Position numbers and translations under genes: made by a program
Assembly (NCBI GenBank): GCA_002368865.1
Contig: DFDT01000193.1
Span: 1 to 12,047, forward strand
Origin: Lachnospiraceae bacterium UBA3821
Lineage (GTDB): Bacteria; Bacillota; Clostridia; Lachnospirales; Lachnospiraceae
Direction of reading: 5' to 3'
DNA length: 12,047 nt
In this document: positions 1 to 7,289 of the stretch, one piece after another
Numbering within the stretch: the stretch's first letter is position 1
How the letters are laid out: each line of letters begins with the position of its first letter
Notes under the pieces: generated by a model
Databases searched by the model: none
Told to the model about the DNA's origin: nothing
What the model saw: the letters and a program-made list of their open reading frames with translations, nothing else

Positions 1-168
1 TTCCTTCATCAGTTTGATACAGGCTTCTTTGCTCTTGGCTTTAACTACCAATATCTTTCTTTTGCCATCAGCCTTATATCCTGCGCTCTTACGGAAGAGG
101 ATCATGCCATCATCACATGTTATGAAGCATCCCTGTCCTTTTGCATTTCTTGTTGTGGATGTACTCAT
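1..168 (-). CDS. Tyrosine-recombinase integrase, N-terminal part (cut by window edge)
   Basis: Reverse-strand reading frame of 56 codons, open to the window edge, beginning MSTSTTRNAKGQGCFITCDD and continuing with a basic stretch (RKSAGYKADGKRK). This resembles the small DNA-binding N-terminal domain that precedes the core-binding and catalytic domains in integrases of Gram-positive conjugative elements and prophages. The catalytic Arg-His-Arg-Tyr residues would lie left of the window and cannot be seen. Two in-frame ATGs occur, at 174 and 168. GGAGG at 178-182 sits 8 nt from the ATG at 168 but only 2 nt from the one at 174, so 168 is chosen. The gene follows the excisionase-like gene by 37 nt on the same strand, the usual xis-int order. 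The integrase assignment rests on the short N-terminus plus context; another element-borne DNA-binding protein is possible. Confidence 0.7.
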   Translation of the reverse strand, partial: MSTSTTRNAKGQGCFITCDDGMILFRKSAGYKADGKRKILVVKAKSKEACIKLMKE

Positions 169-205
169 GTTCATCACCTCCTTCCCTCCACGGATTCAGT
201 CATTC

Positions 206-415
206 TTATAAGTGATATTCTTTGTATTCATAATTCCTAAGCCAGTCAGCCAAAGCTGCTTCGGTCACATAGTATCTCTTTCCGATACAGATTGACGGAA
301 AGCTTTTTGATTTCATCAATGCGTACGCTTTGTCTTTTCCGATTCGCAGATCAGAGCTGAGTTCTTTGACTGTAAGCATCTTGATATCACTGTTGTGAGC
401 TTTGATCTCAATCAT
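206..415 (-). CDS. Excisionase-like winged-helix DNA-binding protein
   Basis: 69-residue protein. Residues about 14-64 (LTVKELSSDLRIGKDKAYAL, then FPSICIGKRYYVTEAALADW) match the MerR-like helix-turn-helix-plus-wing pattern of small excisionases (Tn916 Xis type, HTH_17). Such proteins bend DNA at attachment sites and steer the integrase to excision. The frame stays open upstream to 484, but ATG 415 has a strong AGGAGG 8 nt upstream, and the longer version would start inside the promoter's -10 region, so 415 is chosen. It lies directly upstream of the integrase gene, probably co-transcribed from the promoter at 475-503. That promoter is flanked by likely repressor sites. A plain MerR-like regulator cannot be excluded, but the position beside the integrase favours excisionase. 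Confidence 0.8.
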   Translation of the reverse strand: MIEIKAHNSDIKMLTVKELSSDLRIGKDKAYALMKSKSFPSICIGKRYYVTEAALADWLRNYEYKEYHL

Positions 416-474
416 AGTGTTTTCCTCCTTTCGTTTTATTATCGTAATACTCGATGTACGAATATCGTATATAT

Positions 475-503
475 AACATATCATGTATTTTTAGATATGT
501 CAA
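475..503 (-). promoter_or_regulatory. Sigma-A-type promoter for the xis-int operon
   Basis: On the minus strand, TTGACA (498-503) is followed after exactly 17 nt by TATGTT (475-480). Transcription would start near 468 and give a leader of about 50 nt before the excisionase ATG. The inverted repeat TACGA-N3-TCGTA (457-469) lies at the predicted start point and TCGTACGA (508-515) lies just upstream of the -35 box. A protein bound at either site would be well placed to block initiation. Confidence 0.7.
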
Positions 504-543
504 GTAATCGTACGAACATATTTACTATTTTCGTAAATTATTG

Positions 544-572
544 TTGAAAGCCTAATTTTTTTATGTTAGTAT
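544..572 (+). promoter_or_regulatory. Probable promoter of the XRE repressor gene
   Basis: TTGAAA at 544-549 and TAGTAT at 567-572 are 17 nt apart; a TATTAT lies slightly further on at 570-575. The -10 match is moderate, so the exact box is uncertain. Predicted initiation near 579 falls on a short inverted repeat (GAAAA/TTTTC, 576-592) next to the TCGTA copy at 591-595, which would allow self-repression. Confidence 0.45.
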
Positions 573-626
573 TATGAAAACGTATGTTTTTCGTAAATAT
601 CACATTAATGAAAAGAGGACAAATAT

Positions 627-1109
627 ATGGGAGATGGACAAAACCTTAAAAAGATACTGGATCAGAGAAACATAAGTGTTAGATCAATAGCAAAGAAGAC
701 AGGCATAAGCCCAACTACGTTGTATTCACTGATTCAGAGAGATACCAATTTACGATTCGACTATGCTTTACGAATAGCTAACGAACTGGAAATAGATGTT
801 AACGATATATGTGAAGCAAGTCCTTTCTCCGGAGCTTTGAAGGAAAGCGAGATTTATCCCTCCGTCCCAAATGATATTTATGGTCTTTTGGATGAAAGCA
901 GAGTAAAAGGATACCTGAAAAACTCTATGTATCCGCTCATGCTTTTGTTTGGCAAAAACGGTATGCCAGATGTTGACAATCTTCTTACTTCTTTCTATCA
1001 GCTTGATGACGAATCAAGAAAAGAAGTTGTTGAGACGATACGTTTTAAGCTGCAATATCACCGTGATCCTAAAAGAGCTGAAGAAGTCAAACAGATAAAA
1101 AGCTGGTAA
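627..1109 (+). CDS. XRE-family (cI-like) transcriptional repressor of the mobile element
   Basis: 160-residue protein with an N-terminal lambda-repressor-like helix-turn-helix at about residues 6-60. The HTH core is SVRSIAKKTGISPTTLYSLI at 17-36, followed by the typical ALRIANELEIDVNDIC helices. The C-terminal 100 residues are charged and predicted mainly helical (LDDESRKEVVETIRFKLQYH) and probably oligomerise. No LexA/ImmA-type protease residues are evident. GAGG lies 8 nt before the ATG. It is transcribed away from the xis-int operon, the standard layout for an element's lysogeny or quiescence switch, and likely binds the TCGTA sites between the two genes. Base composition is clearly more AT-rich than in the core genes further right, in line with transfer. 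It could instead act on other element genes outside the window. Confidence 0.85.
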   Translation: MGDGQNLKKILDQRNISVRSIAKKTGISPTTLYSLIQRDTNLRFDYALRIANELEIDVNDICEASPFSGALKESEIYPSVPNDIYGLLDESRVKGYLKNSMYPLMLLFGKNGMPDVDNLLTSFYQLDDESRKEVVETIRFKLQYHRDPKRAEEVKQIKSW

Positions 1110-1199
1110 CCCTCTTGATCCACATTTTTTCTTTCACTAAACAGCTTTTTCGGGTGAAAATACCTCAAAAAAATTACCAATAAAATTACCAATGAAACA

Positions 1200-1227
1200 A
1201 AAAAATGGCCATTATGGGCCATTTTTT
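1200..1227 (+). terminator. Rho-independent terminator after the XRE gene
   Basis: An 11-bp perfect stem, AAAAAATGGCC (1200-1210) with GGCCATTTTTT (1217-1227), closes the 6-nt loop ATTATG. The A-run on one side and T-run on the other allow function in either direction. It ends the repressor transcript and could also stop read-through leftward from the tRNA side. Between here and the tRNA terminator (about 1228-1330) no gene or further clear signal is visible. Confidence 0.75.
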
Positions 1228-1330
1228 AAGTGGAATTGCTCTATATCGTATTAGAAGAACACGGAAGAGAGCGCTAGAAAAGATTTTCTCATAACTCCCT
1301 TAAAACCTTGAAAATACTGGATTTTTCAAT

Positions 1331-1356
1331 AAAAAAGGAACCGAAAACTCGATTCC
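1331..1356 (-). terminator. Rho-independent terminator of the tRNA gene
   Basis: On the minus strand GGAATCGA pairs with TCGGTTCC (one A:C mismatch) around a GTTT loop, followed directly by six Ts (1331-1336 as As on the plus strand). It begins 6 nt after the tRNA discriminator base, so the tRNA is a single-gene transcript. Confidence 0.65.
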
Positions 1357-1361
1357 TAGAG

Positions 1362-3734: not shown

Positions 3735-5177
3735 CTATGAATTGTTCGCCACGCGCAGCAGATCATATTGCTGTACCAGGTCGCATCGTCCGGGCTGCGT
3801 TTGCTGCCCGTGTTCCGCCTCGGTCTGAGCGAGGTCCAGATACAGTTTTTGTTTGGGATGGGGAGCGCTGTCCACCGGCTGCATCTCCTCGTCGTAAAGC
3901 GCCTGCACGCGCACAGGTATGTTGCGTCCGTCAGGTTTCATGATCTCAATCTCATCGCCCACGCAGAATTTGTTGCGCTGGGTGATCTGCGCCAACAAGC
4001 GGACATCTGAGCCAGCCGCTGCGCCATTCTCCACATCGGTGCGCACCACTTGCTCCACGATCCCCAGATACCTATACTCGTTCACATAGGTATTGTTGTC
4101 GTAAATCTGCGTTTCCTCATTGGGCTTTCCGAAATAAAAGCCCGTGGTAAACTGGCGGTAGGTGCATTTGGCAATCTCCGCCTGGTACCAGTTCAGGTTG
4201 GCGCGGTATTTCTCCGGGCTCTCCAGATAGTCGTCGATGGCCTTGCGGTAGGTGCGGGCCACTGTCGCCACGTAGAGCGCCGTCTTCATGCGTCCCTCGA
4301 TCTTCAGGCTGTCAATTCCTGCGTCGATCAGCTCGGGAATGTACTCGATCATGCACAGGTCCTTGGAGTTAAAGATAAAGGTGCCCCTCTCGTTCTCATA
4401 CACGGGCAGGTATTCTCCCGGCCTGGACTCCTCCATCACCGCATATTTCCAGCGGCAGGGATGAGTGCAGGCGCCCTGGTTGGCGTCCCGCCCGGTAAAA
4501 TAGTTGCTCAGCAAGCACCGCCCGGAATAGGAAATGCACATGGCCCCGTGGATAAAGCTCTCGATCTCCATCTCGTCGGGGATGTGCTGTCTGATCTCTT
4601 TTATCTCTTTCAGAGAGAGCTCCCTGGCCGAAACCACGCGCTTCGCGCCCATTTTCCACCAAAACAGATAGGTCTGGTAGTTGGTGTTGTTGGCCTGCGT
4701 GGAGATGTGGACCTCCACCTCGGGCCAGACCTCCTTCGCGATCGTAAACATGCCCGGATCGGAAATGATCAGGGCGTCCGGGCATTCAGGCTTCATATGC
4801 TTCAATTCTTCAAAATATTCCCTTGCCCCCTCCAGGTCGCCGTTATGCGCCAGAATATTGGCGGTCACATAGACTTTCACCCCATGGGCGTGGGCGAACG
4901 CGATCCCCTCCGCCATCTCCGCGGAAGAAAAATTCTTCGCCTTGGCGCGCAGGCCAAACGCCTCCCCACCGATATAGACCGCATCCGCGCCGAAGATCAC
5001 CGCCGTCTTCAAAACCTCCAGGCTGCTGGCAGGCACCAGAAGCTCCGGAGCACGGACCGCGCCAGTGTTGGCGGTGGATGTGGCCTCGGTAGCTTCGGCC
5101 GTGCCGGGCATTGACGAGCCCGCGGCGGCTGTATTTGTCTTGTTGGTTGTATTGGTTATGTCGGTTGTGTTGGTCAT
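3735..5177 (-). CDS. trhP: U32-family protein, TrhP-like tRNA uridine hydroxylase
   Basis: 480 residues. The family core starts at PELLVPASSLEVLK (44) and runs through a TIM-barrel-like domain. Four cysteines in the family's conserved spacing (Cys214, Cys221, Cys237, Cys241, in CISYSGRC and ACTHPC) are suited to hold an iron-sulfur cluster. The C-terminal part (about 390-450) resembles the U32 beta-barrel domain. Once called collagenase-like peptidases, close relatives (E. coli YegQ/TrhP, B. subtilis YrrN/YrrO) make 5-hydroxyuridine at tRNA wobble position 34 using prephenate. The TrmR-like methyltransferase upstream, which acts next in that pathway, supports this role over RlhA or UbiU/V. 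Residues 1-43 are a low-complexity Thr/Asn- then Ala/Thr/Gly-rich tail not typical of the family. AAGGG 7 nt before ATG 5177 supports the long start. A palindromic-site array begins 14 bp upstream. Confidence 0.85.
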   Translation of the reverse strand: MTNTTDITNTTNKTNTAAAGSSMPGTAEATEATSTANTGAVRAPELLVPASSLEVLKTAVIFGADAVYIGGEAFGLRAKAKNFSSAEMAEGIAFAHAHGVKVYVTANILAHNGDLEGAREYFEELKHMKPECPDALIISDPGMFTIAKEVWPEVEVHISTQANNTNYQTYLFWWKMGAKRVVSARELSLKEIKEIRQHIPDEMEIESFIHGAMCISYSGRCLLSNYFTGRDANQGACTHPCRWKYAVMEESRPGEYLPVYENERGTFIFNSKDLCMIEYIPELIDAGIDSLKIEGRMKTALYVATVARTYRKAIDDYLESPEKYRANLNWYQAEIAKCTYRQFTTGFYFGKPNEETQIYDNNTYVNEYRYLGIVEQVVRTDVENGAAAGSDVRLLAQITQRNKFCVGDEIEIMKPDGRNIPVRVQALYDEEMQPVDSAPHPKQKLYLDLAQTEAEHGQQTQPGRCDLVQQYDLLRVANNS

Positions 5178-5191
5178 ACCTGCACCCTTCT

Positions 5192-5463
5192 TTTCGGCCG
5201 AAATTCTTCAAATTTTCATTTTCGGCTAAATTTTATATGCATTTTTTTCATTCTTAGGGCTTCTTTTTCGGCCGAAACTTCTCAGATTAGCATTTTAAGC
5301 CGTATTTTCAATGATTTATTTCGATTATTTTTGACATTCAAGCCTCTTTTTTCGGCCGAAATCAATTATTTCTTCATTTTAGGCCGAATTACAAACTGAA
5401 TTTCACAAAATGACGGATTTATTTTCAGCCGAAATACCTCTTTTCTCATACTTTCGGCCGAAT
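5192..5463. repeat. Array of eight TTTCGGCCGAAA-type palindromic sites in four pairs
   Basis: Strong sites start at 5192, 5266, 5350 (all TTTCGGCCGAAA) and 5423 (TTTCAGCCGAAA). Each is followed 27-29 bp later by a variant: TTTCGGCTAAA near 5220, a weak TTTAAGCCGTAT at 5294, TTTAGGCCGAAT at 5378 and TTTCGGCCGAAT at 5452. Strong sites are 74, 84 and 73 bp apart and weak ones about 74, 85 and 74. The sequence between is T-rich and only loosely conserved (CATTTT before most weak sites; CATTC and GC..TCTTTTTT before strong sites), suggesting old tandem duplication or selected spacing. It fills the AT-rich half of the gap between the trmR-like and U32 genes and ends 14 bp before the U32 start codon. 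It may be a multi-site operator, a set of RNA hairpins (UUUC-GGCC-GAAA) in the leader, or a repeat-expansion locus. No confident promoter was found inside it. Confidence 0.75.
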
Positions 5464-5589
5464 AGTCCCCGCTACAGGCATCTCACGGCCTGTACTCGCG
5501 GTCCTGCAGACGCAACCCATGCTTCCGGCGCCCCGGGCCTACGCTTCCGGCGCCGCATCCGGTGTCCTCGGCGTCTGCCCCCGCCGGCA
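5464..5589. other. GC-rich, repeat-containing non-coding block after trmR
   Basis: This block contrasts sharply in composition with the T-rich array beside it. It contains the exact direct repeat GCTTCCGGCGCC at 5521-5532 and 5543-5554, an outer 8-bp inverted repeat GCAGACGC (5506-5513) / GCGTCTGC (5571-5578), and a hairpin TACAGGC/GCCTGTA (5473-5494, 8-nt loop). No T-run follows, so it does not look like a standard terminator. The only short frame, 24 codons on the minus strand, has no ribosome binding site. I see no gene here. Confidence 0.5.
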
Positions 5590-6231
5590 CTACTTCTTCA
5601 CACTCAGCGTCACCCCGTCCCCGACGGGCAAGATCACGGTCTGGAGCTCGGGATGGTGTGTCAGTTCATACAAATAATCCCGCATGCGGCTGTGGATGGT
5701 ACGATTCCGTCTCGTGACCGCAAAACGGGATTCTATGACATCTCCGTCCTGTAATACATTATCCGAAACCAGCAGGCCGCCCGGAGCGAGAAGCCGCATA
5801 ACCTCCGGCATGAAGTGTATGTATTGTCCCTTCGCCGCGTCCATGAAGATCAGGTCGTAGCTGTCTGTCAGTGTTTTCAGCAGATCCGCCGCATCGCCCT
5901 CCAGGAGCGTGATTCGGTCTTCTCTGCCTGCTTTGCGGAAATTCTCCTTTGCAACCGGGATTCGCTTCTCATATTTCTCGATCGTGGTGATATGGCAGTC
6001 CGCCGGCGCGTACTCGCTCATCAGAAGCGCCGAGAATCCCACCGCCGTGCCGACCTCCAGGATCTTGCGGGGTCTGGCGGATGTCATCAGAAATTTCAGG
6101 AGCTGTGCGGTGGATCTCCGGATGATCGGTACCTCCGCCTCCAGCGCTGTCTTTTCCAATTCGTCCAAATACGGGGGATTCGGCTCGTTCATGGAATCAA
6201 TAAATGTCAGCATCCTCTCATCAATTACCAT
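5590..6231 (-). CDS. trmR: TrmR-like O-methyltransferase (tRNA 5-hydroxyuridine methyltransferase)
   Basis: 213-residue class I S-adenosylmethionine-dependent methyltransferase of the small O-methyltransferase (family 3) type. SAM motif I EVGTAVGFSA is at 59-68; later come TTIEKYEKR (motif II acidic residue), LLEGDAADLL, DLIFMDAAKGQY with the metal-site Asp, and GGLLVSDNVLQDGDV. B. subtilis YrrM (TrmR), of the same family and in the same neighbourhood, methylates wobble 5-hydroxyuridine to 5-methoxyuridine. The next gene downstream encodes the U32 hydroxylase expected to make that substrate. The frame opens 7 codons earlier, but ATG 6231 has AAAGGA 8 nt upstream. It overlaps the end of the MltG-like gene by 11 bp, so the two are probably translationally coupled. 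Substrate is inferred from family and context. Confidence 0.85.
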   Translation of the reverse strand: MVIDERMLTFIDSMNEPNPPYLDELEKTALEAEVPIIRRSTAQLLKFLMTSARPRKILEVGTAVGFSALLMSEYAPADCHITTIEKYEKRIPVAKENFRKAGREDRITLLEGDAADLLKTLTDSYDLIFMDAAKGQYIHFMPEVMRLLAPGGLLVSDNVLQDGDVIESRFAVTRRNRTIHSRMRDYLYELTHHPELQTVILPVGDGVTLSVKK

Positions 6232-6661
6232 TTTTGCTGTCCTTTGTCTCAACGCTTTGGGCGTCTGAAGAAATCTCGGGCTCCGCCGCAGCGCTCTTTG
6301 CCGCGGGTACCATGGCCGCCATGATCTCCTCCGCTGTCATGGAAGTCCGCACCTCGTAGGTGCCGGGCTTAATGGCGTCCTTGTACTCCGAGCAGTAATA
6401 CTGCAGTGCAAAAAGCTTGCTGTCCCGAGTGAGGCCCTTACTCTCCATCAGCTCGCCGATCTCCCAGGCATTCATGTCCGGCTTCAGGGTTACGCTGACT
6501 GCACGCCCCTCGCCCACCGACATGGCGGGCTCCGTAAAGATCCTGTATCCGTAGTTGTAGCAGGTGGCTGCCCCTCTGTATATGATGAATATGGCCGCCA
6601 CGCCCAATACCAGCTTTAAAATGGCACTGAAAACTGCCAATATCAAATTTCCCGGTTTCAT
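6221..6661 (-). CDS. Short MltG/YceG-like membrane protein without the catalytic domain
   Basis: 146 residues from ATG 6661, chosen because GGAGG lies 6 nt upstream; a longer frame from 6703 has no comparable site. One N-terminal membrane segment (LILAVFSAILKLVLGVAAIF) is followed by an extracellular part with the LysM-like subdomain of YceG proteins (MNAWEIGELMESKGL, then IKPGTYEVRTSMTAEEIMAAM), and an Ala/Ser/Glu-rich tail. Full MltG transglycosylases have about 330-350 residues, with an endolytic domain carrying a catalytic Glu after this subdomain; that domain is absent. The stop lies inside the start of trmR, so there is no room for a frameshifted remainder. Position matches B. subtilis yrrL (mltG), just before yrrM. 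It may bind peptidoglycan or regulate a partner; lytic activity is not expected. Confidence 0.75.
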   Translation of the reverse strand: MKPGNLILAVFSAILKLVLGVAAIFIIYRGAATCYNYGYRIFTEPAMSVGEGRAVSVTLKPDMNAWEIGELMESKGLTRDSKLFALQYYCSEYKDAIKPGTYEVRTSMTAEEIMAAMVPAAKSAAAEPEISSDAQSVETKDSKNGN

Positions 6662-7035: not shown

Positions 7036-7102
7036 TGTACACCTCTCTGTTTTATATCTCCCCGGGCATTTGTGAAACGTTTCCTTTCAGTATCGAATTG
7101 AA

Positions 7103-7227
7103 CATATTGTACAATTCATAGAAGGGGCGTTTGAGGACGTTGGTACTTAGGCACCGTACTTTGGTGGCTTAGTACCATTACGTCCGAAATCGAGCGAGAG
7201 CGTCCCCGCATATGAATGTACAATATG
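7103..7227. repeat. 125-nt imperfect palindrome (MITE-like or structured RNA element)
   Basis: Terminal arms CATATTGTACA (7103-7113) and TGTACAATATG (7217-7227) are perfect complements, extended by TTCATA/TATGAA (7115-7120, 7211-7216) with one bulged A, giving 17 bp. Inside lie GGGG/CCCC (7124-7127, 7204-7207), GGACGT/ACGTCC (7135-7140, 7180-7185) and a long hairpin GGTACTTAGGCACC/GGTGGCTTAGTACC (7142-7155, 7163-7176) with T:T and G:G mismatches and a 7-nt loop. No T-run follows on either strand, so it is not a simple terminator. It takes up about half of the 254-bp gap between rnj and ylbF; the rest shows no gene. It could be a non-autonomous palindromic mobile repeat or an mRNA processing/stability structure between the two cistrons. 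Confidence 0.7.
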
Positions 7228-7289
7228 GACAATGATACTCACAAAGAAACCACTTTTCACAATTGCTTGTTAGATCTCTATGGATATCG

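What the first reader, a model, noticed from the sequence alone, without database searches (positions are those of the whole stretch)
5192..5463. Phased array of TTTCGGCCGAAA palindromes upstream of the U32 gene
Eight related sites form four pairs. The strong sites start at 5192, 5266, 5350 and 5423, with spacings of 74, 84 and 73 bp; at 10.5 bp per turn these are 7.0, 8.0 and 7.0 turns, so all four strong sites face the same side of the helix. The partner sites repeat the rhythm (about 74, 85, 74) from an offset of 27-29 bp. Keeping whole-turn spacing despite a 10-bp length change, while the sequence between sites has drifted, is what selection for cooperative protein binding would give. Simple tandem duplication is the competing explanation. 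I do not recognise a regulator for this motif. An extra partial copy (TTCGGCCG) occurs at 5094-5101 inside the U32 coding region.
Basis: partly seen in the sequence, partly recalled or inferred. Interest (0 to 1): 0.7.

Follow-up and report, generated by a model that had tools for sequence, protein, structure and literature searches.

The report
Decayed palindrome array before a tRNA-modification gene
A stretch of AT-rich DNA between two probable tRNA-modification genes of a bacterium carries an old tandem array of one 12-letter palindrome that looks kept while its surroundings drifted; among the relatives examined only the closest sister species shares it, with a single copy, so it is probably a small local protein-binding cluster or a decaying repeat, not a general control system.

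Summary
TTTCGGCCGAAA occurs exactly three times in the 2.80-Mb draft genome, all here (5192, 5266, 5350), with one-mismatch sites at 5423 and 5452 and weaker ones at 5220, 5294, 5378. The array is about 3.5 tandem units of ~74 bp, each with a strong and a partner site, so the partner "rhythm" follows from the unit. Between units strong cores are 96% and partner cores 78% identical, flanks 48%; cores are 48% GC, flanks 27%. That favours maintenance of the palindromes. Helical phasing is weakly supported: it rests on one unit length and one 10-bp difference, and leaves out 5452, as good a match as 5423 but about a quarter turn out of phase. There is no sign of a regulon. Of 48 genus genomes with both neighbouring genes readable, only this one and its 95%-identical sister G083 have any site; G083 has one palindrome where the array stands, best read as collapse of an older array. 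The genes are probably trmR and trhP (wobble-uridine modification). Best reading: lineage-restricted tandem array, probably a local operator cluster; a non-functional repeat is the close rival. Side find: two Anaerolineae genomes carry 2577 and 3215 copies of TTCGGCCGAA.

The parts
5192..5203 (.). strong site 1, TTTCGGCCGAAA (exact), just upstream of the ribosome-binding site (by reading) of the U32/TrhP-like gene
5220..5231 (.). partner site 1, TTTCGGCTAAAT (3 mismatches)
5266..5277 (.). strong site 2, exact
5294..5305 (.). partner site 2, TTTAAGCCGTAT (4 mismatches, weakest)
5350..5361 (.). strong site 3, exact
5378..5389 (.). partner site 3, TTTAGGCCGAAT (2 mismatches)
5423..5434 (.). strong site 4, TTTCAGCCGAAA (1 mismatch)
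5452..5463 (.). partner site 4, TTTCGGCCGAAT (1 mismatch)
5184..5463 (.). whole array: about 3.5 tandem units (74, 84, 73 bp and a truncated last unit); 100-bp windows inside it are 30-33% GC between GC-richer genes
5203..5571 (.). 369 bp absent from sister genome G083, which keeps one TTCGGCCGAA at the same place
5464..5589 (-). GC-rich spacer between the array and the methyltransferase stop codon, with a repeated CTTCCGGCGCC and inverted repeats (the latter by reading)
3735..5177 (-). U32-family gene, closest curated model TrhP (below that model's cut-off); N-terminal 41 residues are a repeat-rich extension not aligned in most genus relatives listed
5590..6252 (-). O-methyltransferase gene, probable TrmR homologue by family and position

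Best explanation
The array arose by old tandem duplication of a ~74-bp unit with two palindromic sites, in the spacer between a probable trmR-like and a probable trhP-like gene, in the ancestor of this species and G083. Mutation then randomised and AT-enriched the DNA between sites while the palindromes, above all the strong ones, were kept, most simply because a two-fold symmetric DNA-binding protein uses them as a local homotypic operator cluster for the downstream gene. In G083 the array is missing and one palindrome remains, so the cluster is dispensable. Shown: sites, unit structure, core-flank contrast, absence in the other relatives read, one site in G083. Inferred: age and direction of change, protein binding, effect on the downstream gene. 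Not shown: phasing as a selected trait, cooperativity, identity of any binder.
For: Cores 0.958 and 0.778 pair identity against 0.482 for flanks; 76 of 20,000 column shuffles give a 12-column run as good. Cores (five sites) 48% GC, flanks 27%. Exact motif 3 times in the 2.80-Mb draft genome, all here; no other palindromic 10-mer recurs within 400 nt in 211.9 kb sampled from the same genome. Tandem origin: TRF finds the 74-bp period; flank likeness above mononucleotide shuffles at 55 of 5000 for units 1-2, 202 of 5000 for units 2-3, but only 439 of 5000 for units 1-3. Unit flanks differ at 44-58% of positions while G000 and G083 differ at 107 of 1129 four-fold sites: the array looks older than the split, so G083 looks like a collapse.
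Against: No sign of a regulon: with up to 2 mismatches the genome has 162 matches, the reversed control 193. No site in 46 of 48 genus genomes with a readable gap, and one site in G083. No regulator known to me; the motif's letters are in none of the papers searched. No convincing promoter: one 9-of-12 match, 0.4 expected. Two intergenic stretches of the window differ between G000 and G083 far more than four-fold sites do (76% and 57% identity), so intergenic clocks are uneven. The core-flank test was made on a feature picked for its cores, with an alignment anchored by them.
Confidence: 0.45

Rival explanations
1. A non-functional tandem repeat in a repeat-prone spacer; the palindromes persist through replication slippage, template switching between palindromic sites, or chance, and nothing binds them.
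For: No site in 46 of 48 relatives read, one in G083; neighbouring slippage: 18-bp repeats at 5126-5177, 15- and 9-nt length differences to G083 at 5076 and 5142, and a 13-bp repeat at 5306-5330 inside the longer unit. The same spacer holds a dispersed hairpin element in G119 (80% over 141 nt).
Against: Does not readily explain cores at 96% and 78% identity and 48% GC in near-randomised 27% GC flanks; 12 bp is short for gene conversion (recalled, not tested); strong sites are kept better than partners.
Confidence: 0.35
2. The palindromes act in RNA: sites pair with each other in the leader of the downstream gene as hairpins affecting stability or translation.
For: Any two sites can pair; the sense strand folds better than shuffles (z -2.79, 2 of 200 shuffles as good), the other strand more so (z -5.01, 0 of 200). 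The last palindrome sits beside the probable ribosome-binding site.
Against: The stronger signal is on the strand that is not the mRNA of the flanking genes; partner changes break pairs without compensating changes in the nearly invariant strong sites (by reading the alignment); no Rfam match here and no terminator-like site. Pairing is unavoidable for repeated palindromes, so the z-scores are not independent evidence.
Confidence: 0.1
3. The array was acquired ready-made by one lineage, by insertion of a foreign repeat-bearing segment at a single palindrome, rather than lost in G083.
For: Base composition far from that of the genes; G083 has one TTCGGCCGAA at the junction; the spacer has received a hairpin element in a relative.
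Against: No second copy found in 138 genus genomes (which scored at most 4 candidates a genome) and no spaced exact pair in viral contigs; no terminal structure beyond the palindromes by reading; the 10 nt before the strong sites are alike between units (16 of 5000 shuffles as good for four units, but 456 of 5000 for units 1-3 alone), as expected of duplication in place.
Confidence: 0.1

Closest known systems
Homotypic clusters of palindromic operators for dimeric bacterial regulators (recalled as a general class)
   Same: Several near-identical two-fold symmetric 12-mers in an AT-rich spacer before a gene, at near whole-turn spacings for four of them.
   Different: No regulator, no sign of a regulon, no conservation in orthologous gaps; the partner set is about a quarter to a third of a turn out of phase; no binding data.
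Intergenic minisatellite-type tandem repeats of bacteria (recalled as a general class)
   Same: Unit of about 74 bp, about 3.5 copies, copy loss in a sister species.
   Different: Units nearly randomised except for the palindromes, unlike young minisatellites whose units are alike throughout.
B. subtilis yrrM-yrrN-yrrO (trmR, trhP2, trhP1) operon for 5-methoxyuridine in tRNA (PMC6599085, passages read)
   Same: Methyltransferase followed by a U32 gene with the U32 C-terminal domain.
   Different: Only one U32 gene follows here; TrhP is the best model but below its cut-off; the passages I saw mention no such array.
HIP1, highly iterated palindrome of cyanobacteria (PMC4390886, passages read)
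   Same: A short palindrome present far above chance.
   Different: In the window's genome TTCGGCCGAA is rare (5 copies, 4 in the array), so this is not a HIP; two Anaerolineae genomes do behave that way.

Membership tests
Phased cooperative operator array | repeated near-identical binding sites well above chance | tested here: met
Phased cooperative operator array | sites kept while spacers drift | tested here: met
   (76 of 20,000 column shuffles as good); post hoc choice of feature noted
Phased cooperative operator array | whole-turn spacing of all good sites | tested here: inconclusive
   4 sites in phase (deviations 0.048, 0.0, 0.048 turn), but 5452, with 1 mismatch like 5423, lies at phase 0.76; P about 0.01 under a tandem null with post hoc tolerance
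Phased cooperative operator array | sites conserved before orthologous genes | tested here: not met
   2 of 48 genus genomes with both genes readable, and one of the two has a single site
Phased cooperative operator array | a regulator that binds the motif | not testable with these tools
   needs a binding assay
Tandem (minisatellite-type) repeat | head-to-tail units alike along their length | tested here: inconclusive
   period 74 found; flank likeness weak (55, 202 and 439 of 5000 shuffles as good for unit pairs 1-2, 2-3 and 1-3)
Tandem (minisatellite-type) repeat | copy number varies between close relatives | tested here: met
   one palindrome in G083, 95% identical around it; one comparison only
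HIP-type iterated palindrome | motif in high number across the genome | tested here: not met
   5 copies of TTCGGCCGAA in own genome, control 3
TrhP (prephenate-dependent tRNA hydroxylase), downstream gene | score above the NCBIfam equivalog cut-off | tested here: not met
   394.9 bits against cut-off 534; U32 and U32 C-terminal Pfam domains present

The most novel reading that the evidence does not exclude
A lineage-specific operator array, selected for whole-turn spacing, lets an unidentified dimeric regulator with a target set of a single gene switch the wobble-uridine hydroxylation step separately from the methylation step encoded just upstream, and such single-target arrays arise by tandem duplication and are lost again by collapse between palindromes.
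Probability: 0.1. Interest if true: 0.55.

Novelty: new member of a known kind. Interest (0 to 1): 0.3.

Why it matters
It is a clear example of a palindrome that stayed while its repeat unit decayed, with a sister genome that has all but one copy missing: a small natural experiment in how local operator clusters, or repeats that mimic them, are born and lost. If the sites bind a protein, the gene they would control belongs to a probable tRNA wobble-modification pair. Without binding data it remains a modest finding.

Tried and rejected
Regulon: exact motif in own genome 3 times, all here; with 2 mismatches 162 matches against 193 for the control. Of six 1-mismatch matches outside the array I read the surroundings of four (C53, C64, C77, C133); by eye, without an ORF call, they lie in gene-like sequence. 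In the genus 15 of 138 genomes have an exact match, the reversed control is in 51 of 138 by my count of the table. Rejected as a genome-wide operator.

Phage or mobile origin: no similar DNA in phage records, no spaced pair in viral contigs.

Similar arrays in the genus: a looser spaced-pair pattern found 7 of 138 genomes against 4 of 138 for the reversed control, a small excess that I do not count as enrichment. The clearest, G032 (shared in part by G080), is three sites 32 bp apart near genes that read as terminase-like.

Orthologues of the array by DNA: after own, the best of 138 genus genomes was G083 (25 nt, 5178-5202); the other listed matches are under 60 nt, the list is cut and at most 4 candidates a genome were scored. 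Six of these loci were printed; only L056 (G083) is the same place. A weak second match in own genome (C190, 76% over 54 nt) was read and has no palindrome.

Exact pair 62 to 92 bp apart in the species collection: 7 stretches, one of them Lachnospiraceae (records of the own or very near genomes may be left out there). L038 and the 14 exact-motif loci L041-L054 hold neither gene; L034-L037, L039 and L040 were not tested for them.

RNA: one Rfam match in the window, a tRNA. Recorded as a rival, not pursued further.

In one search the mask of the weakest partner was set one base off (5295 for 5294), which hardly moves the flank GC.

Papers: motif letters 0 papers, inner 8-mer 167 papers, ten listed, not opened; a four-term search for intergenic palindromic tandem repeats in Lachnospiraceae gave one listing on genome-editing enzymes. 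Seen beyond listings: passages of PMC6599085 and PMC4390886.

Full report
What is there. The 412-nt gap between the stop codon of an O-methyltransferase gene (5590-6252, minus strand) and the start of a U32-family gene (3735-5177, minus strand) holds an AT-rich stretch with repeated TTTCGGCCGAAA. Exact copies start at 5192, 5266 and 5350; one-mismatch copies at 5423 and 5452; weaker ones at 5378, 5220 and 5294. In 5000 dinucleotide-preserving shuffles of the 293-bp region none had as many sites at any of the four mismatch limits tried (0 to 3). The draft genome (2,800,564 bases, 69.89% complete) has exactly three exact matches, all here, and five TTCGGCCGAA, four of them here. In 211,900 bases from twelve other stretches of the genome, some letters of which read N, no palindromic 10-mer recurs within 400 nt; one non-palindromic 11-mer pair of overlapping words does, three times (L120).

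How it is built. Aligned, the array is three units of 74, 84 and 73 bp and a truncated fourth. Each unit has a strong site and, 28 or 29 bp on, a partner site whose commonest form is TTTCGGCCGAAT. The partner rhythm is therefore a result of the unit and not a second observation. TRF finds the 74-bp period over the first two units. Outside the sites the units are nearly randomised: flank identity 0.42 to 0.56 by pair, with likeness reached by 55, 439 and 202 of 5000 mononucleotide shuffles for units 1-2, 1-3 and 2-3. So tandem duplication is the likely origin, but an old one. The 10-bp longer second unit contains a 13-bp imperfect repeat (5306-5330).

Are the sites kept? Pair identity is 0.958 in strong cores, 0.778 in partner cores and 0.482 in flanks; 76 of 20,000 shuffles of the 48 full columns gave a 12-column run as good as the strong core. 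Cores (the five sites with at most one mismatch) are 48% GC, spacers 27%. This favours selection on the palindromes, with the reservation that the feature was chosen because of its cores and that the alignment is anchored on them.

Helical phase. Strong spacings are 7.05, 8.0 and 6.95 turns at 10.5 bp. Under three independent spacings a fit as close has probability 0.0047, under one unit length plus one indel 0.0102; both tolerances were set at the observed fit. The site at 5452 matches the palindrome as well as 5423 does but lies at phase 0.76, about a quarter turn out; the other partners lie at 0.67 to 0.71. Mean resultant length is 0.99 for the four chosen sites, 0.80 for the five with at most one mismatch and 0.55 for all eight. 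I rate phasing possible but not established.

Relatives. Of 138 genus genomes 15, own included, have an exact match anywhere; the reversed control is in 51 by my count. I read the gap only where loci were returned (the best 30 of each): 52 distinct genomes of 138, 48 with both genes in one locus; 2 of 48 have a site with at most two mismatches, G000 (6) and G083 (1); the four without a readable pair are G006, G008, G031 and G128. The gap ranges from -70 to 990 nt, measured to the aligned start of the U32 gene. G083 is 95.0 and 95.5% identical in the two aligned blocks and lacks 369 bp from 5203; its spacer has one TTCGGCCGAA and is identical to the window over 5178-5202. Four-fold sites differ by 9.5% (107 of 1129), unit flanks by 44 to 58%: the array is probably older than the split and G083 a collapse. 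Against a strict clock, four other intergenic stretches measured are 95-100% identical, but 7036-7289 is 76% and 1110-1360 is 57%, the first because of a diverged hairpin element (by reading). No outgroup that I found near enough has a comparable gap; G119's is filled by a copy of that hairpin element (80% over 141 nt).

Neighbouring genes. Pfam gives Peptidase_U32 and its C-terminal domain, and Methyltransf_3; the best NCBIfam model of the U32 protein is TrhP, at 394.9 bits against a cut-off of 534, and no NCBIfam model reached its cut-off for the methyltransferase. In B. subtilis yrrM, yrrN and yrrO lie in one operon and make mo5U34, yrrM methylating and the two U32 genes needed for hydroxylation (PMC6599085, passages). 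trmR and trhP are therefore likely names by homology and order, untested here. The rest of the window holds MtaB, IreB, RuvX, DUF1292, RNase J, a YlbF-family, a YceG-like (just below cut-off) and a type III glutamine synthetase gene.

Mechanism. I hold it most likely (0.45) that the sites are, or until recently were, a local cluster for a two-fold symmetric binding protein acting on the downstream gene; a plain repeat without function is close behind (0.35). The genome-wide counts (162 against 193 for the control at two mismatches) show no regulon. RNA folding is better than shuffles on both strands, as repeated palindromes must be, and stronger on the strand that is not the message of these genes.

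Elsewhere. Exact pairs 62-92 bp apart occur in 7 stretches of the species collection: five from two Anaerolineae genomes, one Bacteroidaceae, one Lachnospiraceae with a 63-bp tandem repeat behind a gyrA-like gene (gene named by reading). The Anaerolineae hits led to a separate observation: 2577 and 3215 copies of TTCGGCCGAA in genomes of 7.8 and 5.1 Mb, controls 0 and 17. Searches for 'highly iterated palindrome' with Anaerolineae or Chloroflexi found no paper, and in the HIP paper PMC4390886 no word beginning 'Chloroflex' or 'Anaerolin' occurs.

Noticed in passing
L034, L036, L037, L039, L040 (genomes G162, G163): Two Anaerolineae metagenome-assembled genomes carry 2577 and 3215 copies of the palindrome TTCGGCCGAA (reversed control 0 and 17), about one per 3.0 and 1.6 kb: a candidate highly iterated palindrome like cyanobacterial HIP1. 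In 40 kb of their loci (chosen for the motif) the inner 8-mer occurs 64 times against 3.7 expected from 4-mers; from 7-mers about 60 are expected, as those 7-mers nearly all belong to the 8-mer. No paper found for that term with Anaerolineae or Chloroflexi.
   Followed up: partly
window 7095-7240: A dispersed hairpin element (RNA fold z -9.56) in the gap between the YlbF-family and RNase J genes: 8 matches in G000 (two of them pieces of one place on C184), 20 in G017 where 20 of 47 candidates were scored, matches in 7 of 41 genomes searched, own included; at the same place in G083 it is strongly diverged between near-identical flanks, and a copy fills G119's trmR-trhP gap.
   Followed up: partly
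window 1-1361: DNA left of tRNA-Gln (1361-1434) aligns to the G083 stretch fetched only from 1331 on; it encodes an HTH_17 protein (206-484) and a Cro/C1-type protein (627-1109): perhaps the end of an element integrated at the tRNA gene.
   Followed up: partly
window 5055-5177: The U32 protein has a 41-residue Thr/Ala/Asn-rich N-terminal extension encoded partly by 18-bp repeats, with 15- and 9-nt differences to G083 in or just beside it; most listed genus relatives align only from about residue 36-44.
   Followed up: partly
L038 3975-4095: Lachnospiraceae genome from horse faeces: 63-bp tandem repeat with an exact TTTCGGCCGAAA in each of two copies, just behind a gyrA-like gene (named by reading).
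   Followed up: no
L045 1501-1576 and L115 1501-1542: TTTCRGYCGAAA-like sites 32 bp apart near genes that read as terminase-like in G032 (in part also G080), and a 42-nt inverted repeat with similar arms in G085.
   Followed up: no
window 5464-5589: GC-rich spacer with inverted repeats (GCAGACGC/GCGTCTGC, ACAGGC/GCCTGT, by reading) and a repeated CTTCCGGCGCC; also mostly missing in G083.
   Followed up: no
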